Origin: Planctomycetota bacterium
Lineage (GTDB): Bacteria; Planctomycetota; UBA8108; UBA1146
Length of the DNA stretch: 16,269 nt
NCBI GenBank assembly: GCA_002691835.1
Contig: NZJA01000052.1
Coordinates: 1 to 16,269, forward strand
Direction of reading: 5' to 3'
Shown here: in pieces, positions 5,994 through 16,269 of the stretch
Numbering within the stretch: position 1 is the stretch's first letter
Layout of the letters: each line of letters starts with the position of its first letter
The notes under the pieces: model-generated
Database searches by the model: none
Seen by the model: the letters and a program-made list of their open reading frames with translations, nothing else
Told to the model about the DNA's origin: nothing
Made by a program: the position numbers and the translations under genes

Positions 5994-7058
5994 TCACCCC
6001 TTCAGGAGGTGTTGAAACTTCTTCTTCTCTGCAGCCCAGCGATAGGCGTTTTCTGCAGAGATCGAACCCTCTTTCAAACGAGCAAGAATCGCATCATCCA
6101 TCAGCTGCATTCCCTTGCCCCTGCCGCCCTCGATCAGGGAGACGATCTTGTGAACCGCACCTTCACGAATAATGTTCGGCAATGCGCCATCATGAAAAAG
6201 AAGCTCATTGACAACCACCCGGCCTTTGCCGTCCTTCTTGGGAATCAGTAGCTGAGCAATAATCCCCTTGAGTGAACAGGAGAGCATCGTTCGAACCTGG
6301 TTTTGCTGCTCTTCCGGAAACACATCGATGATCCGGTCGACCGTTTTGGCCGCGCTATTGGTGTGCAGTGTTGCAAAAACCAGATATCCCATTTCTGCGG
6401 CAGTAATCGCCAACCCGATCGTCTCGAGGTCTCTCAATTCACCCACGAGAATCACATCCGGGTCTTGACGACCGACCGACCGAAGAGCTTTGGCGAAAGA
6501 TTCAGAGTCGATGCCCACTTCACGCTGAGTAATCTGCGACATTTTGTTCGCATGCACGAATTCAATCGGCTCTTCAATGGTAACGATGTGCCTCGACTGA
6601 TTTTGATTGATGTAATCGATCAAAGCAGCCAGCGTCGTTGACTTTCCACTTCCTGTGGGCCCGGTACAAAGAACCAGTCCATTTCGCAGATGGCAGAACT
6701 TTTCAATGTGGGTGGGCACTCCCAAAGCTGAAACCGGAAGAATCTCTTCGGGGATCATTCGAAAAACCCCAGCTAAACCGTGCTGCTGCCTGAAAAAGCT
6801 GCAGCGGAAACGAGCGACTCCGGGCATCGCATAAGCCCAGTCGAGATCATTTTTTTCAGCCAGCTGTTTTTGACGTTTCTCATCAAGCATCGGCAACAGC
6901 AGCTGCTCAGTTTGCTCGGCGGTGAGTGGATCCTTGGTCACAGGACGGAGATGTCCATGGACACGAATCTTCGGTGGCATTCCAGCACTCACGTGAAGGT
7001 CTGAACCATCCAGATCTTTGATCATCTTCAGTAATTTATCGATTTGTTCGGTGCTCAT
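5994..7058 (-). CDS. pilT: Type IV pilus retraction ATPase PilT
   Basis: The 354-residue protein is full-length canonical PilT, the hexameric cytoplasmic motor that depolymerises type IV pili. An N-terminal PAS-like domain begins SDLHVSAGMPP (19-29). Walker A is GPTGSGKST (133-141), the Asp box is IVTIEEPIEF (about 158-167), Walker B is DPDVILVGELRD (about 200-211), and the His box is ATLHTNSA. The C-terminal PNIIREG corresponds to the AIRNLIRE retraction motif. The ATG at 7058 has AGGAGAG overlapping the TAG stop of the upstream PilT-like gene. No pilin, pilB, pilC or secretin gene is present, so the pilus itself must be encoded elsewhere. It sits between another PilT-like gene and waaF. Confidence 0.95.
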   Translation of the reverse strand: MSTEQIDKLLKMIKDLDGSDLHVSAGMPPKIRVHGHLRPVTKDPLTAEQTEQLLLPMLDEKRQKQLAEKNDLDWAYAMPGVARFRCSFFRQQHGLAGVFRMIPEEILPVSALGVPTHIEKFCHLRNGLVLCTGPTGSGKSTTLAALIDYINQNQSRHIVTIEEPIEFVHANKMSQITQREVGIDSESFAKALRSVGRQDPDVILVGELRDLETIGLAITAAEMGYLVFATLHTNSAAKTVDRIIDVFPEEQQNQVRTMLSCSLKGIIAQLLIPKKDGKGRVVVNELLFHDGALPNIIREGAVHKIVSLIEGGRGKGMQLMDDAILARLKEGSISAENAYRWAAEKKKFQHLLKG

Positions 7059-7065
7059 AACTCTC

Positions 7066-8424
7066 CTAACCCTTCATCGTCGAGGGGTCTTCCGCGTGAT
7101 AGCGGGCCACCTCCGGTGTGATCACGCCCTTTTTCAGCAGTTCACGAATCGAATCATCCATCGTGATCATTCCCTGCTTGCGTCCGGTCTGGAGAACCGA
7201 GGGCAGTTGGAAAGTCTTGTTTTCCCTGATCAGGTTCCCCACAGCCGGTGTGGCAAACATGATTTCCAGAGCCGGCTCTACGCCGGTTCCATCTTTTCGA
7301 GGTAGCAACTGCTGGGAGATGACCCCACGCATCGATTCCGAAACCATGGCCCGAATCTGCTCCTGCTCCCTCGGTGGGAAGACATCGATGAGGCGGTCCA
7401 GAGATCGAACGGCATTCGTCGTATGCAAGGTTGCCAATACCAAATGCCCGGTTTCGGCAGCCGTGATGGCCATCGAAATCGTTTCAACATCTCGCATTTC
7501 CCCCACCATGATGACATCGGGGTCTGCACGCATCGCCGATTTGAGGGCTGAATAAAAACTTTCGGTATGACGTCGCACGTGACGTTGATTGATGTTCGAT
7601 CCAGAGGCTTCAAAAATGTACTCGATCGGATCCTCAACCGTCACGATATGGTCGTTTCGATTTTTGTTCACGAGGTCGACCAAAGCCGCCAAAGTCGCCG
7701 ATTTTCCACAACCTGAAGGCCCCGTGACCAACACGATTCCCTGGTTGTACTGGGTAAACTCTTTGAGAATTGCCGGCATGTGCAATTCTTCCAGCGACGA
7801 GACCTTTTTCGGAATCAGGCGGAAGATCGCTTCCTTGCCTTTTCGCTGAACGAAACAGTTGGCACGGTAGCGACCGTGATCTTCTGTCTCCAAGCAGAAA
7901 TCCAGATCGAGATGCTCTTCCAGCTCACGCATTTGCTCAGCATCCAGCAACTCACGAATCGCTTTTTCTGTGTCCTCTGCCGAAAGGGTCGGATGCTTCA
8001 AACGAATCAGCTGCCCATGGAGACGGACCAACGGTGCTGAATCGACCTGGAAGTGAAAGTCGGAGCAACCGAGCTCTCTCGCCTTCCGCAAATATTGGTC
8101 GATGGGCTTGCCGCTCAGTTCGGTAAAATCCATTCTCTGGACGTCGGCGACCGTAGGGCCTGACCCCGCAGACGCAGTCGCTGCCGAAGTGGCGGTTGCC
8201 GAAGCAGCAGCCCCCCCCAAACGCTCCTCAATCTTTTTCTGAATCGCTGAAGCATGCTGTGCAGTAATCAATCCTTTGGCCACCAGCGTCTCACCGAGGT
8301 CTCCTCCCTCAGGCAAACCGGCCATCACCTTTTTCAAGGCGGCTTCATCGACCAATTTGTTTTTGAGGACGATGCGACCGAACATCGTTGCCATCGCGGA
8401 ACGATCCCGTGTCTCTTCAGTCAT
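7066..8424 (-). CDS. PilT-like ATPase with MshEN-like N-terminal extension
   Basis: The C-terminal 350 residues are a PilT-type motor: SDFHFQVDSAP (121-131), Walker A GPSGCGKSA (235-243), Asp box IVTVEDPIEY (260-269), Walker B DPDVIMVGEMRD (301-312) and His box ATLHTTNA (331-338). Before it lies a region absent from normal PilT. Residues 15-68 carry two helical repeats, FGRIVLKNKLVDEAALKKVM and LGETLVAKGLITAQHASAIQ. These look like the GSPII_E N-terminal/MshEN repeat known from PilB and GspE, and an Ala/Ser/Thr linker (71-90) follows. Walker A has Cys and Ala at places usually occupied by Ser and Thr. The ATG at 8424 has GGGGAG 6 bases upstream. It is probably a PilU/PilT2-like accessory motor; the extension suggests regulated assembly, which is inference. 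Confidence 0.9.
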   Translation of the reverse strand: MTEETRDRSAMATMFGRIVLKNKLVDEAALKKVMAGLPEGGDLGETLVAKGLITAQHASAIQKKIEERLGGAAASATATSAATASAGSGPTVADVQRMDFTELSGKPIDQYLRKARELGCSDFHFQVDSAPLVRLHGQLIRLKHPTLSAEDTEKAIRELLDAEQMRELEEHLDLDFCLETEDHGRYRANCFVQRKGKEAIFRLIPKKVSSLEELHMPAILKEFTQYNQGIVLVTGPSGCGKSATLAALVDLVNKNRNDHIVTVEDPIEYIFEASGSNINQRHVRRHTESFYSALKSAMRADPDVIMVGEMRDVETISMAITAAETGHLVLATLHTTNAVRSLDRLIDVFPPREQEQIRAMVSESMRGVISQQLLPRKDGTGVEPALEIMFATPAVGNLIRENKTFQLPSVLQTGRKQGMITMDDSIRELLKKGVITPEVARYHAEDPSTMKG

Positions 8425-8537: not shown

Positions 8538-10046
8538 CTAGCCTTCAGGGGTTTCGGGGCAAGATCGTGTCCCACTCCTGATTTGCTCAATCAGGCCAGA
8601 GGTCGAGAATCCAGGCTTCAAAGTCACTGTTTCCACCCTTCCTCCCGCCGCTTCGACCACTTCCCTGCCCACCACCTCTTCAATCGAATAATCAGCCCCT
8701 TTGACCAAAACATCCGGAAGTAACTGACCGATCAGTGATTCCGGGGTGTCTTCATCAAAAATCACGACATGGTCGACATTAGAGAGGGCTCCCAAGAGAC
8801 GGGCTCTTTCCGTCGCTGGCAGGATGGGTCGCTCGGGTCCCTTCAGACGGGTCACCGATGCATCCGAGTTCAAACCGACAATCAAGGCATCGCCAAAAGC
8901 TCTCGCCGCTTCAAGCAGCTGTAAATGCCCCGAGTGCAAAAGATCGAAACAACCGTTCGTGAAGACGACTGTCTGCTGGGAAGACCGATACTGATCCATG
9001 ATCAGAACCATCTCTTCGATACTGTGTCCGGGATCTTTCTGTAATCCACAATAAGCATCTCGGGCAGAAGAGAGCTCCCAAAGTTCCACCGGCTGAACAC
9101 CGACTTTTTGGATTTCTAAACCCGCACCGAGATTCGCCAACTGACACGCATCATCCATCGACCAGCCAGAAGCCAATGACAAGCCCAGAAGCGAAAGCAC
9201 CATGTCACCTGCACCGGCGACATCGGTCACTGCCTGAATCCGGGTCGGATGACGGCGAAGTCCTCCACCCTTGGAAACGCGAGTGATTCCATCCCGGTCG
9301 AGAGTCAAAATGCAGTGCTCCAAATGAAGCTTTTCAACAAGGGCTTCCCCAACCCGAGCGTGATCAGCAACCTCATCGCCGACCTCCATGCCACTGGCAG
9401 CAGAGGCCTCGTATCTGTTGGGACAAATCAGGGTTGCCCCCCGGTACTTCTGCCACTCCCCCGACCGGCCAGGATCGACCAAGACAGGGATTCCTCTCGC
9501 CCGAGCCTCATTCAGCAATTCCTGAAGCAACTCTTCGCCGAGAAGCCCCTTCTCGTAGTCGGAAACCAAAATGATCGACAAGGGTTGATCAAGAATCCGC
9601 TTCAATGCCTGACGACATGCGGAAAACTCAGACTCACTCAGGGGTTGGACCTGTTCCCGATCTAATCGAAGAATCTGCTGCTGTCCTCTTCCCGCATGCT
9701 GAACGCCTGCCAATATCCGGGTCTTGCAGCTGGTGGGACGATCCTTGGAAACCACGATATCGGAGACATCTGCGCCCAAAGACGCCAGAGCTTCACGGAT
9801 ATGTTCTCCAGCCTCATCGTTGCCGATCAGGCCAATGACGTGGGTAGAGACACCCAGTGCTGACAGATTTGCGACAACACTTCCGGCTCCACCAACCCGA
9901 CGTTCATGCTGTTGCGATCTGACGACTGGAACCGGAGCTTCCGGTGAAACCCTCTCGACGTCACCGTAGTGATATTCGTCAAGCATCAAATCACCGATGA
10001 CCAGAACCGGTTTTTCAACCTGGATCGATTCGATTTCAGGAATCAT
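8538..10046 (-). CDS. hldE: Bifunctional heptose-7-phosphate kinase / heptose-1-phosphate adenylyltransferase
   Basis: The 502-residue protein has both HldE domains. The N-terminal PfkB/ribokinase-type kinase (1 to about 330) shows GDLMLDEYHYGDVERVSPEA (18-37), VGGAGSVVANLSALG (51-65) and the anion-hole GAGD (278-281). The C-terminal nucleotidyltransferase (about 355-490) shows FTNGCFDLLHSGH (362-374), GLNSDASV (391-398) and VKGADY (448-453). Together they turn sedoheptulose-derived heptose 7-phosphate into ADP-heptose for the LPS core. The epimerase (hldD), isomerase (gmhA) and phosphatase (gmhB) are not in the window. Minor departures from the usual kinase motifs are Gly-Ser where Ala-Asn is common after VGGA/PGGA, and Met after GAGD. 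The ATG at 10046 overlaps the upstream stop as ATGA, with AAAGGA as SD, so translation is probably coupled. Confidence 0.95.
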   Translation of the reverse strand: MIPEIESIQVEKPVLVIGDLMLDEYHYGDVERVSPEAPVPVVRSQQHERRVGGAGSVVANLSALGVSTHVIGLIGNDEAGEHIREALASLGADVSDIVVSKDRPTSCKTRILAGVQHAGRGQQQILRLDREQVQPLSESEFSACRQALKRILDQPLSIILVSDYEKGLLGEELLQELLNEARARGIPVLVDPGRSGEWQKYRGATLICPNRYEASAASGMEVGDEVADHARVGEALVEKLHLEHCILTLDRDGITRVSKGGGLRRHPTRIQAVTDVAGAGDMVLSLLGLSLASGWSMDDACQLANLGAGLEIQKVGVQPVELWELSSARDAYCGLQKDPGHSIEEMVLIMDQYRSSQQTVVFTNGCFDLLHSGHLQLLEAARAFGDALIVGLNSDASVTRLKGPERPILPATERARLLGALSNVDHVVIFDEDTPESLIGQLLPDVLVKGADYSIEEVVGREVVEAAGGRVETVTLKPGFSTSGLIEQIRSGTRSCPETPEG

Positions 10047-10996
10047 GAGGTTCCTTTCGCCAATCTTTGGAGGAGAGCCATCCGGAATAAGGGCAAATTG
10101 ATTTCATGATGCCCAATCAGCGAGATGCCACGTTCAACCGGTCGCTGGAGAACATTCCGACTGGTTCGGTAATGAGGAATCATGTCAAAGTTAATCGCCG
10201 TCACTCCTGCAAGTTCTTGACCCAGATTTCGGGCAATATTAATGACTTTCAGAAAAACTTCCGGCATGACGACAGCCGAGCCAATATTCAGCCAGCAGCC
10301 GTTTTCAAGATCTTGAACGACCGCGGCCAAAAGACGGAAATCGATGGCGGTCGCCTCCCCCATATCCGCTCCAGCAACCCCCGGATGCATGTGGACAATA
10401 TCCGTTCCCACAGCGACGTGAACCGTTGCAGGAATTCCCAGACGGCGGGCACTCGCTAAAATGGAAATCTCTGCATGAGGAAATTTTGAATCGAAAATAT
10501 AATCACCCAGTGCTGCCCCAAGTCCGACTCCGGTGGAACCCGATTTTGCCGCCTCACGAAATGCTTCCGCAGTTTCGGCAGACATCCCAAATGAACCATC
10601 GGCAATGTGGGTCGCCACATCCTCCGAAGTTTCACCGATCATCGCCAGTTCAAGATCATGAATCGCGGTCGCACCATTCATCGCCAAAGCCTGAATGACA
10701 CCCCGTTCCATCAAGTCTATGAGAATCGGTCCCATCCCGACCTTCACGACATGCCCTCCGAGTGCAGCCACTACAGGAGCCTCGGCAGCATGCGCTGTCA
10801 CGACCGCATCGACTGCAGCACGTAACTCGCCGGCAGCGAGAATATCGGGAAGGTGGTCGAGCCACTCACTAAAAGACGCATCCACCGGACACGGCTTCCG
10901 AAATTGACTTCGGCGAACAATATTGTGCCGATCACGGATCGGGGTGGCTTGGATTCCGTCAAGATCGAGTGGTTGCCAACGGCTCTCTCGGTTCAT
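10043..10996 (-). CDS. Conserved-looking protein of unknown function in the LPS cluster
   Basis: The 317-residue soluble protein could not be assigned to a named family. Striking blocks that look like active-site motifs are GGHVVKVGMGPILIDLMERG (80-99), MNGATAIHDLELAMIGETS (106-124), GTDIVHMHPG (197-206), GSAVVMPEVFLK (239-250), NFDMIPHYRTSRNV (269-282) and GHHEI (295-299). The Gly-rich start followed by alternating strands and helices suggests a Rossmann-like enzyme. A distant link to the deoxyhypusine-synthase fold is a guess only. The ATG at 10996 has GAGGAG 5 bases upstream, which excludes a 46-residue upstream extension. It lies 73 bases after lpxK and overlaps hldE by 4 bases, so a role in lipid A or heptose metabolism is plausible. 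Confidence 0.8.
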   Translation of the reverse strand: MNRESRWQPLDLDGIQATPIRDRHNIVRRSQFRKPCPVDASFSEWLDHLPDILAAGELRAAVDAVVTAHAAEAPVVAALGGHVVKVGMGPILIDLMERGVIQALAMNGATAIHDLELAMIGETSEDVATHIADGSFGMSAETAEAFREAAKSGSTGVGLGAALGDYIFDSKFPHAEISILASARRLGIPATVHVAVGTDIVHMHPGVAGADMGEATAIDFRLLAAVVQDLENGCWLNIGSAVVMPEVFLKVINIARNLGQELAGVTAINFDMIPHYRTSRNVLQRPVERGISLIGHHEINLPLFRMALLQRLAKGTS

Positions 10997-11069
10997 GGAA
11001 ACTCCTCTTCGGCATTTCGGGATGCTATCAGAGAGAGCTTTGTACTTCACGCCTCCCCGGAAACTGATC

Positions 11070-12176
11070 TTAGGGCTGACCAGCCGTCCATCTTGAAAGA
11101 ATGGCTTCCACAGGGAAATCATGCTCAATCTCAAGAACGAGAATCCTGCGCCGTAAAGGCTCAGGAAGGCCTAATTCTGCAACCTTGGCCGAATCTTTGG
11201 CAGTACAGACCAATGCTTGACATCCATTTTGGTCAGCAAGACTCAGAAGCTGATCCAGATCTCGCTCAGAAAAATGCCGATGATCCTGGTAACGAACCTC
11301 TTTCAGAACCCGAATTCCGGTGGATTGCAGGGAGTTCAGGAACCCATCCGGGTCACCCAATGCACTAAAGGCCAGGCAGGAATCTACCTCTGCAGGAACT
11401 GGATCTCCCCCATCGAGGGGTCGAAATCCAAGAACTCGAGTCTGGCAAAGATCCACAGGAATCTGCGGATGAAGCTGACGGAAATATCCGGTGACCTGAT
11501 CCAACCACTCCGGCGAACAACGCTCGGTGCGTGTCAGGAGAATGTGATCCGCTTCTGAAACGGCGTCGATCGGTTCTCTTAATCGGCCGAGCGGAAGACA
11601 GTAGCCACCGCCAAAGGGATCCTGCGCATCACAGAGGAGAATATTGAGATCCCGGTACAAGCGACGGTGCTGAAATCCATCGTCGAGCAGAAGAAGGTCG
11701 ACTTCAGGGTGCTTTGTGAGAAGAAGCTTACCGACGTGAAAACGGTCTTTATGCTGGAAATGCGGAACATCGGGAAGCTTTTCCTGCAGCATTTGAAACT
11801 CATCGTTCACACTTTGCCTGGAACCGCTCTCAGATCCGGCTCTCGGTCTAGACTCTGCACCATAGCCTCGACTCAAAATTCCAGGACGACCTCCCAGATC
11901 TTTCCAGGCCTTTGCCAATGCCAAAACTGTGGGAGTCTTTCCCGTACCGCCAACGGTGATATTTCCGAGACTGATGACCGGAACCGGGAGACGTAAAGGC
12001 CATTCACCCGATCGGAATTTCGCTGATTCTCGACGCTTTTTTTGGCTCACACCCCAACGCCACAACTTCTCAAGGATTTGCAGAAGAGGACCCGGGAGCG
12101 GGAGGACCGGACGGGCGGACAAGGGCATTGAGCGGCTCAGATTACTTCTCCTCGACACCTTCTCGGGGACGGTCAT
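11070..12176 (-). CDS. lpxK: Tetraacyldisaccharide 4'-kinase LpxK
   Basis: The 368-residue protein matches LpxK, the membrane-associated kinase that phosphorylates the 4' position of the lipid A disaccharide precursor to give lipid IVA. Seen are a hydrophobic N-terminal helix region, the P-loop SLGNITVGGTGKTP (69-82), ILSRGYG (100-106), NDEFQML (124-130), LLLDDGFQHRRL (162-173) and DPFGGGYCLPLGRLREP (186-202). The start is uncertain. The ATG at 12176 overlaps the preceding small gene by 35 bases and has no SD. An ATG at 12128 is also possible. A CTG at 12140 lies 7 bases after GAGGAG and just behind the upstream stop, but CTG starts are rare. The family core is unaffected by the choice. Confidence 0.93.
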   Translation of the reverse strand: MTVPEKVSRRSNLSRSMPLSARPVLPLPGPLLQILEKLWRWGVSQKKRRESAKFRSGEWPLRLPVPVISLGNITVGGTGKTPTVLALAKAWKDLGGRPGILSRGYGAESRPRAGSESGSRQSVNDEFQMLQEKLPDVPHFQHKDRFHVGKLLLTKHPEVDLLLLDDGFQHRRLYRDLNILLCDAQDPFGGGYCLPLGRLREPIDAVSEADHILLTRTERCSPEWLDQVTGYFRQLHPQIPVDLCQTRVLGFRPLDGGDPVPAEVDSCLAFSALGDPDGFLNSLQSTGIRVLKEVRYQDHRHFSERDLDQLLSLADQNGCQALVCTAKDSAKVAELGLPEPLRRRILVLEIEHDFPVEAILSRWTAGQP

Positions 12177-12372
12177 GAATGATCGTCAGGACTTCCAGAA
12201 CCTGCTTCTCTTTCATATGTCCAAGGTCGATCAATATCTGGCCGAGAAAACGGTGGGATTCACCCCGGGCCTCATCGCGAGCCTGAACGGCAAGACCTTC
12301 ATAGAGTTGGGCGGTGGTGATGTATTGCAGTTCGAAGGCGACTTCTCCGAACAGTCTCATTTCTTCTGGCAA
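12142..12372 (-). CDS. Small stand-alone MshEN-like protein
   Basis: The 76-residue product consists almost entirely of two helical repeats: LFGEVAFELQYITTAQLYEG with VQ (7-29), and FLGQILIDLGHMKEKQVLEV (42-61). Each fits the pattern hhGxhhhxxxxhxxxxhxxxh seen in the N-terminal GSPII_E/MshEN domain of PilB/GspE ATPases, where two such motifs can bind cyclic di-GMP. Residues between the repeats (QARDEARGESHR) are charged. The same kind of module forms the extension of the PilT-like ATPase in this cluster. The TTG at 12372 is supported by AAGGAGG 5 bases upstream. It overlaps the annotated lpxK start. Family membership is judged from pattern only; whether it binds a nucleotide is unknown. Confidence 0.78.
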   Translation of the reverse strand: MPEEMRLFGEVAFELQYITTAQLYEGLAVQARDEARGESHRFLGQILIDLGHMKEKQVLEVLTIIHDRPREGVEEK

Positions 12373-12468
12373 AAAAACCTCCTTGTCAACTCTGGGATAT
12401 CACTACTAAAAGGATACCCGTCTCGCCATTCAAGGACCAGTAGAGCATCTTCCAAACGTATTCCCTCG

Positions 12469-13491
12469 TTAAAGGTCACGTCGGCGTCTTTCCATTTGCT
12501 GGCGATCATAAAGCTGATTGGCATCCAGCCGCAAATCTTCGACTTCAAGAAGCCTCTGAACCAAATCTTTGGGCAGTCCCGATTCTCCGCTGCAGGCTCC
12601 GGCGAGTGCTCCCCCAATTGCCGCTGTCAACTGAACTGCCCCACCAGCCTGTAAACAGGAGAGCAGGACTGACCGCGGAGATCCGGGATCTCTGAACCAG
12701 GAATACAATGCCACCATAAAGATGGGGAGGCAGCGATCCTCAACACCGATCCGATCAGGAGAAACATCTCTGTGATCACCCAAGGAAGCGAGTTTCAAAA
12801 ATGCATCTTGTTCATTCAGTGTCAGCATTCCAGGAATTTGCTGAATCGCCTCTGCAACTTCAGAATCGATACGACTCGCCGCAACAGCTGCTGCATCGAG
12901 AACGACACCCAAAACAATCTCATGATGAGTCAAGCAGTGAGCAATAATCGTTGCCAGCGCCGCATTCACTGCACGAACCCGAGTATCCTCATGAGTGATA
13001 GAAGTCAGGCGATCGACCGCATCATTCAGCTCTTCTGGAGCATCGTGACACCAAAGTCCCACAAGAATGCTGCACAAGAGAGCCGAAGCCCCATCTTCTC
13101 CAGGAGGACAGGCACAGCCCCGGGCTGAGCTTCCCTGACGCAACCACCGGGACATTGCTCCATCGATGTCTGACAGACGCTCGATCATTCGATTTTCACG
13201 CCACAGTGGAATCCACGCCTCAACGATGGAACCTTCCCGGATCAACCCCTCTTGAGAGATCGATTGGGAAGCGAGGGAAAGTAATTGAATCGACGCGCCA
13301 TGCTGTCCCTCTGGAAAGTAGCCCGATCGATGACGGACATATCCGTCGACAGCTTCTTCCCCCAGAGCGCGCATGAAGATGCGTGAAGAACCCGCATAAG
13401 GAAAACCGAGAGCACTGCCCACCGCTGCCCCAAGAAAGGCTCCCCTGAAACGATCTTGTAGCTGCTCCTTGAGAGTCAGAGACGATTTCAT
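12469..13491 (-). CDS. Degenerate ADP-ribosylglycohydrolase-fold protein
   Basis: The 340-residue protein follows the all-helical ADP-ribosylglycohydrolase (DraG/ARH) pattern. DRFRGAFLGAAVGSALG (13-29) is the family start, THEDTRVRAVNAALATIIA (166-184) the central helix and GGAVQLTAAIGGALAGACSG (283-302) the C-terminal motif. The metal-binding residues are missing. The usual GDALG reads GSALG, the TDDT segment is replaced by GQHGASIQ (62-69), and the C-terminal GGDxDT reads GGAVQL. The fold is therefore likely kept while dimetal hydrolysis of ADP-ribose bonds is lost, as in crystallin-type relatives. The ATG at 13491 overlaps the upstream stop as ATGA, tying it to the FGGY-like gene. A 96-bp gap follows before the next gene. 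Confidence 0.8.
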   Translation of the reverse strand: MKSSLTLKEQLQDRFRGAFLGAAVGSALGFPYAGSSRIFMRALGEEAVDGYVRHRSGYFPEGQHGASIQLLSLASQSISQEGLIREGSIVEAWIPLWRENRMIERLSDIDGAMSRWLRQGSSARGCACPPGEDGASALLCSILVGLWCHDAPEELNDAVDRLTSITHEDTRVRAVNAALATIIAHCLTHHEIVLGVVLDAAAVAASRIDSEVAEAIQQIPGMLTLNEQDAFLKLASLGDHRDVSPDRIGVEDRCLPIFMVALYSWFRDPGSPRSVLLSCLQAGGAVQLTAAIGGALAGACSGESGLPKDLVQRLLEVEDLRLDANQLYDRQQMERRRRDL

Positions 13492-14600
13492 TTCGATTCA
13501 CCCTGATCTGTCACTGGTGGGGAAGGATCTGAATGAGACTTGCGCCATTCGGCGAGTGTCTGCAAAGGACAACGCTTACGCCAAAAAGGCTTCATATCCC
13601 GAAACCACCCCAAGCCGACCCCTGCAAGGAGTGCGGGGCCCCTTGAAGGTTTTCCAAAATCTGCTGACAGTCGAATCTCTTCTGCATTCCCAGACCAGTC
13701 GTATGCCGCCGCGTCATCGATGCTGTCGTAAATGACATCGATCTCCGGCTCTGCGCCTTTTCTGGGATCGGCCGCTTCAGTCTTGGCTTGAACATACCAG
13801 TGGTCTCCATGCGGAGACGGAAGAGCATTTCGAGAATCACCTTCAAAATCACTGGCGGGCACGACCGTCCAGGTTTGAGCGCCCTGCTGATCGAGAAGTA
13901 CAATGCGTTGGCCAGAAATCGGCTCGCATGCCATCCATAATCGGGCAGCAACGGGTGTAGTGCCGGCCATGAACCAGGTCCCCCTCGGCAAACCCGTATC
14001 ACGAACGAGTTCCTCCTGAAGGATGCCCACCCTTTGGTATGCGGGCATCACTGGCGGAAGCTGACCCGAAGCAAGACCCACCCCATCCACTTTGGCAGGA
14101 TCCCAACGCTCAATCGAGTGAGCTCCCGGGGTCAGTCCCGATTGCCATGCAAAAGAGGTCGTCGTCGCGAGAGCACCAGTCCAGCGATAACGCAGCCAAT
14201 CCTGAACATCCAGAACCGCAACCAAACTGCGGGTCAGACCCGGTTGAGCAGAAAGTGTTGTTGGTATTCTTTCATCAATGTTTGCTTCAGGTGGAGATTC
14301 AGAAGTCCAGCCGAGAGCTCTCGGAGGAACAGGCTCCATCTCTGCATCGACGAGAACCAACCCTGTACTGCTGGCGATCCCGATGGCCGCGACAGAACCA
14401 GGACGAATCTTCCCCTCCTGAAGAGCATGCTGGAGCAATGCCCTGACAGAACGAACCTTCTCGTCCGGGTGAGTCTTCCAATCCTCGCTGAAGGAGGAGG
14501 GGACTTTCTCTGTAACGACCGCCAGAACCGAACCACGACGGTCGACGGCCTGTAAAACCAGAGTATTTCCGCAGAGTTCAAGACCTAGCATGACACTCAT
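13488..14600 (-). CDS. Degenerate FGGY-family carbohydrate kinase-like protein
   Basis: The 370-residue product resembles xylulokinase/glycerol kinase-type FGGY enzymes but is shorter than their usual near-500 residues. The N-terminal actin-like half has LGLELCGNTLVLQAVDRRG (5-23) where DLGTT is normal, then AAIGIASSTGLVLVDAEMEP (71-90). The block GLPRGTWFMAGTTPVAARLW (203-222) matches the region that normally reads GxxGGGDxxAAxxG, so the catalytic aspartate is missing. The C-terminal half is compressed but keeps SRGPALLAGVGLGWFRD (319-335). A catalytically inactive pseudokinase is the simplest reading. The ATG at 14600 has AGGAGG 6 bases upstream, which removes 23 upstream residues. It is the first gene of the minus-strand cluster and overlaps the next by 4 bases. 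Confidence 0.75.
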   Translation of the reverse strand: MSVMLGLELCGNTLVLQAVDRRGSVLAVVTEKVPSSFSEDWKTHPDEKVRSVRALLQHALQEGKIRPGSVAAIGIASSTGLVLVDAEMEPVPPRALGWTSESPPEANIDERIPTTLSAQPGLTRSLVAVLDVQDWLRYRWTGALATTTSFAWQSGLTPGAHSIERWDPAKVDGVGLASGQLPPVMPAYQRVGILQEELVRDTGLPRGTWFMAGTTPVAARLWMACEPISGQRIVLLDQQGAQTWTVVPASDFEGDSRNALPSPHGDHWYVQAKTEAADPRKGAEPEIDVIYDSIDDAAAYDWSGNAEEIRLSADFGKPSRGPALLAGVGLGWFRDMKPFWRKRCPLQTLAEWRKSHSDPSPPVTDQGESK

Positions 14601-14689: not shown

Positions 14690-15760
14690 GTGAGACCACT
14701 TCCTAGCAAACCCCTGTCACCAGAGAGAATCCTCGTCATCCGGCTCAGTGCCCTCGGCGACGTCATCCAGGTCCTCCCTGCTCTGGAGGCCCTCGGTCGA
14801 CTGTTTCCCGGAGCCCAGATCGACGCGATCACAGAATCTCTGTCTTTTCCGCTTTTGCAAAACCACCCGCGACTCGATCACGTTTTCTGCTTTCCAAGGT
14901 CCGAAATTCGCAGAGACTGGCGCAATCCCGAAACTCGAGGCAATGCCCGCGACCGCTGGGAAGAAATGCGATCCCAGCTTCATGGCCACTTCTACGACCT
15001 CGTGATCGACTGGCAATCCAATTTGCGTTCAGCATACATCCGCATGCTCACCCGGAATCGTCATGTCCTGCAGTTGCATCCCGAAGATGGCGGTGAACTG
15101 CCGGGTTGGTGGCCGGGGTGGAGACCCCGACACGCAGCGGGGCGAGTCCATCGAAGCGAACGGGCGATGCATCTCGTCCGTGAGTTGGGCTACTCCGATT
15201 CCACTCCAGCAGGTGAACTCGCTTTGGGGGCCTCTCCCGTGATCCCAAGGAATCATGAATCGGAGCAACCTCCTCGACCGATTCTTCTTCATCCATTTGT
15301 CAGCGCATTTGGACGCTTCAAAGAATGGCCTCTTTCCCATTGGCGAAGACTGGCTCTCGCACTTGCAGACCGGGGTGAGAGGGTTTGGCTTTCTGGCGGT
15401 CCCGGAGAAAGAGAAAGACTCGCAGACTTGCTGGATTCTGAAAAACCAGCGATCACTCTGGCTCCAGCAACGAAAGACACCGCAGACCTCGGTCGAATGA
15501 TTCAGCAATGCCGCGCCGTGGTGGCTGCAGATACTGGGGTGATCCACCTCTCCGCCCTGCTCGGACTGCCTTCAGTCGGCCTGTATGGGCCCAAAGATCC
15601 GCTCGTTCATGGACCCAGAGGGCCCCGTGCATTGGCTCTCCGATCCGGAGTTCCCTGTTCTCCATGCTTGCTGAGAGACTGTGATCACTCGGTCTGCATG
15701 AGTTCTCTGGAAGTGGATAAAGTGGTGCAAGGACTCGATTCCCTGCTGGAATCTGTTTGA
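14690..15760 (+). CDS. Glycosyltransferase family 9 protein, heptosyltransferase I-like
   Basis: The 356-residue protein is a second GT9 member. The N-terminal ILVIRLSALGDVIQVLPAL (14-32) and YDLVIDWQSNLRSA (102-115) resemble WaaC (heptosyltransferase I) more than WaaF. The donor half has FGRFKEWP (207-214), SGGPGE (235-240) and AADTGVIHLSALLGLPSVGL (279-298). A C-terminal CSPC...C...CM segment (323-337) parallels the one in the WaaF-like protein. The GTG at 14690 is the only upstream start in frame near the conserved region, but no SD is visible, so the start is uncertain. It is divergent from the long LPS/pilus cluster and precedes an acyltransferase gene by about 100 bases, consistent with LPS core synthesis. 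Acceptor and donor sugars cannot be deduced. Confidence 0.88.
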   Translation: MRPLPSKPLSPERILVIRLSALGDVIQVLPALEALGRLFPGAQIDAITESLSFPLLQNHPRLDHVFCFPRSEIRRDWRNPETRGNARDRWEEMRSQLHGHFYDLVIDWQSNLRSAYIRMLTRNRHVLQLHPEDGGELPGWWPGWRPRHAAGRVHRSERAMHLVRELGYSDSTPAGELALGASPVIPRNHESEQPPRPILLHPFVSAFGRFKEWPLSHWRRLALALADRGERVWLSGGPGERERLADLLDSEKPAITLAPATKDTADLGRMIQQCRAVVAADTGVIHLSALLGLPSVGLYGPKDPLVHGPRGPRALALRSGVPCSPCLLRDCDHSVCMSSLEVDKVVQGLDSLLESV

Positions 15761-15861
15761 GTCCCTCAACACCCTGTTTTTCGTCGCCCAGATCGCACTG
15801 AAAGAAGAAGCATCGAAAATTCAGATTGACCCGATCCCGGTCAACAACGGATGCTGTCTCC

Positions 15862-16269
15862 ATGAGTTTCAATCCGCGAACCACTGCCCACGAATCCCCC
15901 AACGGGATGGAGTCCGACTCCGCTCCTGAGCACCCCTACCGCTGGAGTGGAAAGGTGATTGCTGGAGTCATCGATTCGTTGATGCAATCCCTCGACCTTC
16001 GTTGGTACGGAGGAGAGCATGCCATCCGTGCCCTTCAAGATCATGGAAATCTGGTAGTCACCTTCTGGCATGAATGGGTTCTCCCTCTCAGCTATACCCT
16101 GAAATCGAATGGCTTCTGTGCGTTGACGAGTCGCCACCACGACGGTGCCCGCCTTGGCTCGGCCTTGCGCTGGCTGGGAGTAGAGGTTTGTCATGGATCC
16201 AGCTCAAGAGGTGGGTTGAGAGGTTTTCAAGAACTCGAAACCTTGGCGCGAACCCGTCTCTCCCCCGTC
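15862..16269 (+). CDS. DUF374 lysophospholipid acyltransferase-like protein, N-terminal part (runs off the right edge)
   Basis: The 136 visible residues match the DUF374 family, related to membrane-associated glycerolipid and lipid A acyltransferases. After a polar leader come VTFWHEWVLPLSYTL (66-80), then ALTSRHHDGARLGSALRWLG (87-106), and CHGSSSRGGLRGFQEL (110-125). The SRHxDG and GSSSRGG blocks are typical of the family. The C-terminal half is outside the window. No SD precedes the ATG at 15862; an in-frame TTG at 15826 and an ATG at 15907 are alternatives. Its place after a heptosyltransferase-like gene suggests a role in lipid A or LPS assembly, probably at the inner membrane, but the substrate is unknown. 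Confidence 0.87.
   Translation, partial: MSFNPRTTAHESPNGMESDSAPEHPYRWSGKVIAGVIDSLMQSLDLRWYGGEHAIRALQDHGNLVVTFWHEWVLPLSYTLKSNGFCALTSRHHDGARLGSALRWLGVEVCHGSSSRGGLRGFQELETLARTRLSPV

What the first reader, a model, noticed from the sequence alone, without database searches (positions are those of the whole stretch)
12142..14600. Coupled pseudoenzyme pair plus a small MshEN-like protein: a possible regulatory module
The degenerate kinase and degenerate glycohydrolase overlap by 4 bases. After 96 bases comes a 76-residue protein made only of MshEN-like repeats. All lie immediately upstream of lpxK, and hldE, two PilT-type motors and waaF follow on the same strand. Three probable ligand-binding but non-catalytic proteins in a row look more like a sensing and control unit for envelope or pilus output than like metabolic genes. 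I know of no described system with this composition.
Basis: inference. Interest (0 to 1): 0.7.

Follow-up and report, generated by a model that had tools for sequence, protein, structure and literature searches.

The report
Coupled dead enzymes in LPS operon
In a group of uncultured Planctomycetota, a gene cluster for making the outer-membrane sugar-lipid carries two enzyme look-alikes with ruined active sites and a tiny helical protein, all kept intact by selection, which points to a binding or control role that nobody has yet tested.

Summary
In detail: three genes at the stated places, a 4-base kin/GH overlap and a 96-base gap; one gene between lpxK and hldE was missed. The FGGY-like protein models with both kinase lobes (pLDDT 91), but its catalytic-Asp position is Pro. 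The ADP-ribosylglycohydrolase-like protein keeps 0 of 6 metal ligands in the window and in 13 of 13 close relatives. The 76-residue protein is MshEN-like but lacks the c-di-GMP motif. These are not decaying genes: pairwise dN/dS is 0-0.14 and the 4-base overlap recurs in 13 of 13 loci. In the 29-genome class GH occurs in 27, next to lpxK in 26; the small gene is in 22 of those 27 loci, the linked kinase in 16. The distribution is nested, so the trio was assembled stepwise. Two linked homologues keep 6 of 6 ligands; other complete ones keep 0-4. Best reading: non-catalytic, ligand-binding proteins serving an LPS-core/PilT operon. An ADP-heptose sensor is the boldest reading not excluded. Function is inferred, not shown.

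The parts
13488..14600 (-). FGGY-type pseudokinase ('kin'), 370 aa; both actin-like lobes with a shortened second domain; catalytic Asp position is Pro216
12469..13491 (-). ADP-ribosylglycohydrolase-fold pseudoenzyme ('GH'), 340 aa; all six metal ligands replaced
   Evidence: PF03747 2.5e-28; profile hits MJ1187, DraG and ARH3 structures; ligand table
13488..13491 (-). ATGA stop/start overlap of kin and GH, suggesting translational coupling
   Evidence: sequence; the same 4-base overlap in 13 of 13 core loci
12142..12372 (-). 76-aa stand-alone MshEN-like four-helix protein, TTG start with Shine-Dalgarno AAGGAGG
12373..12468 (-). 96-base intergenic gap; no consensus promoter or terminator found here on the minus strand; no Rfam match in the window
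11070..12176 (-). lpxK, tetraacyldisaccharide-1-P 4'-kinase
   Evidence: PF02606 7.5e-72
10043..11050 (-).
   Evidence: NF052581 374 bits, cut-off 250
8538..10046 (-). hldE, ADP-heptose synthesis
   Evidence: NF008454 427 bits (under its cut-off of 521) and TIGR02199 193 bits (over its cut-off of 181.5)
7066..8424 (-). PilT-family ATPase 1 with a ~100-aa N-terminal extension that is weakly MshEN-like
   Evidence: TIGR01420 432 bits; NF053729 21.3 bits, under its cut-off of 38
5994..7058 (-). PilT-family ATPase 2
   Evidence: TIGR01420 435 bits
4949..5989 (-). waaF, heptosyltransferase II
   Evidence: TIGR02195 184 bits, cut-off 134.6
14690..15760 (+). divergent GT9 heptosyltransferase, best match heptosyltransferase I (WaaC-like)
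   Evidence: TIGR02193 131.6 bits, under its cut-off of 185.3; PF01075
15826..16269 (+). DUF374 acyltransferase-like gene, cut by the window end
   Evidence: PF04028 2.2e-9

Best explanation
These are intact genes of an LPS core/lipid A and PilT operon. An ancestrally metal-dependent ADP-ribosylglycohydrolase gene, linked to lpxK across this Planctomycetota class, lost its two-metal site in the lineage of the window. A compact FGGY pseudokinase sits directly upstream and is translationally coupled to it, and a stand-alone MshEN-like protein lies between GH and lpxK. The most likely function is non-catalytic: the two pseudoenzymes form or join a complex that binds small molecules (an ADP-sugar and a sugar or sugar phosphate) and tunes the output of the lpxK-hldE-heptosyltransferase pathway, with the small helical protein as adaptor or sensor. 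Shown here: anatomy, loss of active-site residues, conservation, gene overlap, nested distribution. Inferred: translational coupling from the overlap, ligand binding, complex formation, direction of control.
For: GH keeps 0 of 6 metal ligands in the window and in 13 of 13 core loci; the metal-coordinating acidic residues of ARH3 are critical for hydrolysis, and ARH3 D77A, which loses one metal, bound ADP-ribose 23-fold tighter (passages of PMC8141533). The GH locus is the only PF03747 gene found in each of the 13 core genomes. Kinase: the SePSK-D221 position is Pro in 18 of 21 aligned rows and Ser in 3, never Asp; D8A, T11A and D221A mutants of SePSK have much lower activity (passage of PMC4880283). 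Constraint: NG86 dN/dS 0.024-0.138 kin, 0.026-0.125 GH, 0-0.139 small, against 0.096-0.171 lpxK. The 4-base kin/GH overlap recurs in 13 of 13 core loci. GH lies within 1.4 kb of lpxK in 26 of 27 class loci, on the opposite strand in 6 of those 26. Of homologues outside the class, 0 of 9 fetched loci show lpxK by tblastn (9 of the 15 out-of-class genomes with a match were fetched).
Against: No experiment or expression data. ARH3 D314A, which loses the other metal, bound ADP-ribose worse, about as metal-free ARH3 (passage); the core GH lacks both metal sites, so its ADP-ribose-type binding could equally be weak. Former pocket segments of GH are not significantly more invariant than the rest (22 of 41 against 117 of 299; 49 of 339 circular shifts reach it). 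Much of the surrounding gene order is also conserved in the core clade (mrp in 11 of 13 core loci), so linkage there is partly general synteny. Complex formation was not modelled.
Confidence: 0.5

Rival explanations
1. Independent functions: the three proteins do unrelated jobs and stay together only because this clade keeps gene order; the trio is no module.
For: Neighbours such as mrp and the thioredoxin-like gene are also syntenic in most core loci; distributions are nested, not identical; short FGGY relatives occur unlinked in 4 outer genomes.
Against: The ATGA overlap is exactly kept in 13 of 13 core loci; GH-lpxK adjacency holds in 26 of 27 class loci although GH is on the opposite strand in 6 and many other neighbours differ in the outer genomes.
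Confidence: 0.27
2. Changed catalysis: GH and/or kin have a new, metal-independent or different activity (for example on a heptose or ADP-heptose intermediate) rather than being dead.
For: Core-specific conserved residues appear at the old site (ARGCAC..GE, HGA..Q, GGAVQ/GGAVE in most); linked homologues in G014 and G017 keep 6 of 6 ligands, so an enzymatic role at this locus existed or exists there.
Against: All six metal ligands plus the GDALG Asp and the following Glu are gone in the window and 13 of 13 core loci; I could not name an alternative catalytic set.
Confidence: 0.17
3. The small protein is a genuine c-di-GMP receptor acting on the PilT motors, and the pseudoenzymes are bystanders.
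For: MshEN-like by sequence and model; GGDEF domains in 16 of 16 genomes; PilT genes in the same operon, one with a weak MshEN-like N-terminus.
Against: 0 of 16 family rows carry even the relaxed MshEN motif of Wang et al., and the two motifs are 6 residues further apart (G-G 35 against 29); the MshE stretch printed does match the same patterns. Caution: 12 of 12 other PF05157 domains tested from these genomes fail the pattern too, so failing it is common in this lineage and no canonical receptor was found for comparison.
Confidence: 0.12
4. Decaying pseudogenes carried along in an operon.
For: Active sites are lost.
Against: Open frames without stops in all 13 core genomes for GH and kin; dN/dS at most 0.139 in the pairs computed; the window's GH (83%) and small protein (92%) are more alike to L002's than LpxK is (65%).
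Confidence: 0.02

Closest known systems
ADP-ribosylglycohydrolase family (DraG / ARH3, PF03747)
   Same: Full-length Pfam match and profile matches to MJ1187, DraG and ARH3 chains; the G017 homologue aligns over its length to MJ1187 and ARH3
   Different: 0 of 6 metal ligands in the core clade; linked to lpxK
ADPRHL1, the vertebrate pseudo-ADP-ribosylhydrolase
   Same: An ADP-ribosylhydrolase-family protein lacking catalytic residues, with a role in heart development (starts of abstracts in a search listing)
   Different: Vertebrate protein; the planctomycete forms lost the site separately (inference from linked relatives with 6 of 6 ligands)
FGGY carbohydrate kinases (xylulokinase, glycerol kinase, SePSK)
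   Different: 370 residues against 418-527 in those rows; catalytic Asp and Thr positions not kept
MshEN c-di-GMP domain (MshE, PilF GSPII-B)
   Same: Two tandem helix-turn-helix motifs, four helices; best Foldseek and VIA hits
   Different: Stand-alone; the motif Arg positions are not Arg (an Arg usually sits one residue earlier), spacer 6 longer, second Gln missing

Membership tests
ADP-ribosylglycohydrolase enzymes (ARH/DraG) | Pfam PF03747 over cut-off along the whole domain | tested here: met
   100 bits, cut-off 26.2, profile 1-287 of 287
ADP-ribosylglycohydrolase enzymes (ARH/DraG) | Binuclear metal ligands (T/S)DD and D-x-D-(T/S) | tested here: not met
   0 of 6 in the window and in 13 of 13 core loci; residue equivalence through the L067 homologue aligned to ARH3 chain 2qty; ligands from the coordination table in PMC8141533 (passage)
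ADP-ribosylglycohydrolase enzymes (ARH/DraG) | Hydrolase activity | not testable with these tools
   needs assay
FGGY carbohydrate kinases | FGGY fold with both domains | tested here: met
FGGY carbohydrate kinases | Catalytic Asp in the A-G-x-x-D loop (SePSK D221) | tested here: not met
   A-G-T-T-P216 in the window; Pro in 18 and Ser in 3 of 21 rows; equivalence from the 5vm1 alignment; D221 role from PMC4880283 passage
FGGY carbohydrate kinases | N-terminal loop Asp/Thr (SePSK D8, T11) | tested here: not met
   window GLELCGNT: Glu8, no G-T at the next positions; 7 of 21 rows keep the Asp (P0028, P0031, P0034, P0035, P0037, L072, L075), none the G-T (position by simple counting and alignment)
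FGGY carbohydrate kinases | FGGY_C Pfam domain | tested here: not met
   only PF00370 (N-terminal) matched at E<=1
MshEN domain | MshEN four-helix fold | tested here: met
MshEN domain | NCBIfam NF053729 over cut-off | tested here: not met
   34.7 bits, cut-off 38
MshEN domain | Two RLGxx(LVI)(LVI)xxG(LVI)(LVI)xxxxLxxxLxxQ motifs, 5-residue spacer | tested here: not met
   strict 0 of 16 rows, relaxed 0 of 16; 0 and 1 of the 120 listed homologues (of 421); G-G distance 35 in 16 of 16 (motif from PMC5013675 passages); MshE stretch as control matches
MshEN domain | c-di-GMP binding | not testable with these tools
   needs ITC/DSF

The most novel reading that the evidence does not exclude
A three-protein non-catalytic metabolite sensor for LPS core synthesis: the pseudo-ADP-ribosylhydrolase has been turned into a receptor for ADP-heptose (an ADP-sugar like ADP-ribose, made by HldE in the same operon and used by the WaaC/WaaF-type transferases on either side), the FGGY pseudokinase reads a heptose or heptose phosphate, and the MshEN-like adaptor passes the state to LpxK and/or the PilT motors. 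This would be a new kind of envelope-precursor sensor.
Probability: 0.15. Interest if true: 0.8.

Novelty: new variant of a known kind. Interest (0 to 1): 0.5.

Why it matters
The papers that my searches found on pseudoenzymes of the ADP-ribosylhydrolase family chiefly concern vertebrate ADPRHL1 (listing). Here a bacterial class shows a graded series at one locus, from 6 of 6 metal ligands to 0 of 6, which would let the change from enzyme to non-enzyme be followed step by step. If the proteins bind LPS precursors, they would expose an unknown control of lipid A/heptose flux, possibly tied to pilus motors, in Planctomycetota, whose envelope regulation is poorly known (general knowledge).

Tried and rejected
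Pseudogene decay: rejected (dN/dS, open frames). Canonical c-di-GMP receptor: motif test negative; as a control the MshE stretch printed matches the patterns, but 12 of 12 other PF05157 domains from these genomes (12 of the 42 matches were fetched) do not (a first try with some wrong frames was), so I withdrew the argument that these genomes hold other, canonical MshEN receptors. Co-decay of both active sites: an Asp in the G014 and G017 kinases (GSDP, GGGDP) looked at first like the catalytic Asp, but it lies one residue before the SePSK-D221 position, which is Pro there too; dropped. Pocket conservation in GH: not significant. MshEN-likeness of the PilT1 N-terminus by profile comparison with the small-protein alignment: not supported (hhalign Probab 0.22, E 0.28), only a sub-cut-off NF053729 hit. 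A fusion idea from a precomputed Pfam label (PF14332) on P0088 was dropped after reading its sequence, which looks like a tandem of the same repeats. dN/dS for the GSU2086 gene came out wrong for some pairs because trimmed hits held upstream stops; not used. Single-sequence searches of PDB with the L065 kinase gave nothing at E<=1, with the L067 kinase only weak matches, chiefly of its N-terminal part. The GH tree warns of long-branch joins, so the order of events rests on the concatenated tree of pilT1, pilT2, lpxK, hldE and waaF, which used the window, L002-L013, L065, L067, L068, L071, L073, L076, L078, L080, L081 and L082, rooted by me on L080/L081; L001, L066, L070, L074 and L077 (short contigs) were not in it. 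In the GH tree the truncated rows L079 and L082 were left out. GH homologues P0015-P0019 keep most or all ligands, but their gene neighbourhood was not examined. A fifth outer genome, G018, has a weak match to the kinase profile (E 1.1e-4, 668-aa frame), not followed. Plasmid search with GH: one distant Rubrobacter match, 27.7%. Literature searches: 'pseudoenzyme'+'ADP-ribosylglycohydrolase' 0 papers, 'pseudoenzyme'+'FGGY' 0, 'FGGY'+'pseudokinase' 3 papers, none relevant by title, 'lpxK'+'Planctomycet'+'c-di-GMP' 0, 'ADP-ribosylglycohydrolase'+'lpxK' 0, 'MshEN'+'Planctomycet' 1 paper, on Verrucomicrobia by its title; the library holds open-licence papers only. Rfam scan of the window: nothing. 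Pfam scan of four outer-locus lipoprotein-like sequences: nothing.
Full report
What is there. On the minus strand the window encodes a kinase-like protein (13488-14600), a glycohydrolase-like protein (12469-13491), a 76-residue protein (12142-12372), then lpxK, a GSU2086-family gene, hldE, two PilT-family ATPases and waaF. A divergent heptosyltransferase-I-like gene and a DUF374 acyltransferase-like gene lie upstream. No consensus promoter or terminator was found at the junctions on this strand, but such scans are near chance level here.

Glycohydrolase-like protein. PF03747 covers it end to end, and its profile finds MJ1187, DraG and ARH3 structures. The equivalents of the ARH3 metal ligands T76, D77, D78, D314, D316, T317 (coordination table in PMC8141533, passages; equivalence through the alignment of the L067 protein to ARH3) are all replaced in the window and in 13 of 13 core loci. 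The linked homologues of G014 and G017 keep 6 of 6; the other complete class members keep 1 to 4 (L066 3; L068 3; L070 3; L071 3; L073 2, with one unread residue; L074 3; L076 3; L077 4; L078 3; L080 1; L081 1), and G018 is split over two contig ends. Erosion of the metal site is thus widespread at this locus, complete only in the core clade. In the tree of neighbour genes the core clade is sister to L067 (G017), then L065 (G014). If a full site is never regained, the losses in the core clade, in G016 and in the outer genomes are at least three separate ones (inference). In all 13 core genomes this is the only PF03747 gene found; G014 also has one, G016 and G017 two.

Selection and coupling. 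NG86 dN/dS is 0.024-0.138 (kin, 9 pairs), 0.026-0.125 (GH, 8 pairs with finite dS of 9) and 0-0.139 (small, 9 pairs), against 0.096-0.171 (lpxK, 7 pairs) (the window-L002 pair is saturated at synonymous sites). The 4-base kin/GH overlap is present in 13 of 13 core loci, while in L066 and L067 the two genes are +7 and -8 bases apart; the GH-small gap varies from 90 to 162 in these 15 loci, with starts chosen by me.

Distribution. A genome-contig scan gave 13 loci, all with kin, GH, small gene and lpxK in the window's order (L001 ends inside lpxK). In the 29 genomes of that class, GH is found in 27. In the 27 loci examined, lpxK lies beside GH in 26 (the 27th contig ends first), the small gene is present in 22, and kin in 16; GH and lpxK are on opposite strands in 6. 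In 4 outer genomes relatives of kin (24-26% identity) sit away from GH; in G022, G023 and G026 a DUF374 gene, the family of the window's acyltransferase-like gene, is next to it or one gene away. Across 294 genomes drawn from the phylum, kin at E<1e-60 occurs in 14, all of them genomes of that class; 16 more have weaker matches. The small-protein profile matches 192 of 294, many inside larger frames, so MshEN-like repeats are common in the phylum, while matches at E<1e-35 (16 genomes) were all in the class. At E<=1e-25 the GH profile matches 35 of 294, 15 of them outside the class; I fetched loci of 9 of those 15, and tblastn with the window's LpxK found none beside GH (two of the nine are contigs under 4 kb). 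The class name is not given by the tools; named members include Planctomycetia bacterium TMED53.

How it may work. The locus makes lipid A and heptose core. A protein fold built to hold ADP-ribose, stripped of its cleaving metals, beside the gene that makes ADP-heptose, suggests binding of an ADP-sugar. Published ARH3 mutants cut both ways: D77A binds ADP-ribose 23-fold tighter, D314A binds it worse (passages). An FGGY fold is built to hold small sugars. From this I infer a ligand-binding, non-catalytic complex that tunes LPS precursor flow, with the small protein as adaptor. Loss of metal ligands and gene overlap are shown; ligand, partner and direction of control are not. Pocket conservation gave no significant support.

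Novelty. The folds are known, and a pseudo-ADP-ribosylhydrolase is known from vertebrates (search listing). The trio at an lpxK locus was not found in the searches listed under Tried and rejected. I rate it a new variant of a known kind, interest 0.5.

Noticed in passing
10043-11050 (minus strand): GSU2086-family (deoxyhypusine-synthase-like) gene between lpxK and hldE; found in 14 of 27 class loci (some contigs end before it), not seen in the outer ones.
   Followed up: partly
7066-8424 (minus strand): PilT-family ATPase with a ~100-residue N-terminal extension that weakly matches NCBIfam's MshE-related model (21.3 bits, cut-off 38).
   Followed up: partly
L068, L070, L077, L078, L082, between lpxK and GH/small gene: In these outer class loci a ~200-residue lipoprotein-like protein (signal-like start, GC-type lipobox, 'ENET'-like motif, recognised by eye) sits next to lpxK; no Pfam match for the four tested.
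   Followed up: partly
L149, L150, L151: A second small MshEN-like paralogue lies within a few genes of groEL; in L151 it follows a murC-murB-ftsQ-like run directly, in L150 after one more gene (names by eye from ORF translations).
   Followed up: no
G014:C287 and G017:C236 (L065, L067): Same gene order from kin to waaF as the window but GH with all six metal ligands: natural comparison proteins.
   Followed up: yes
15826-16269 and L031, L072, L075: DUF374 acyltransferase-like gene near the FGGY-like gene both in the window and in three outer genomes where the kinase relative is unlinked from GH.
   Followed up: partly
L153-L164: 12 of 12 PF05157 (MshEN) domains tested from these genomes lack the published c-di-GMP motif, so MshEN-type domains may generally not bind c-di-GMP in this lineage.
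   Followed up: partly
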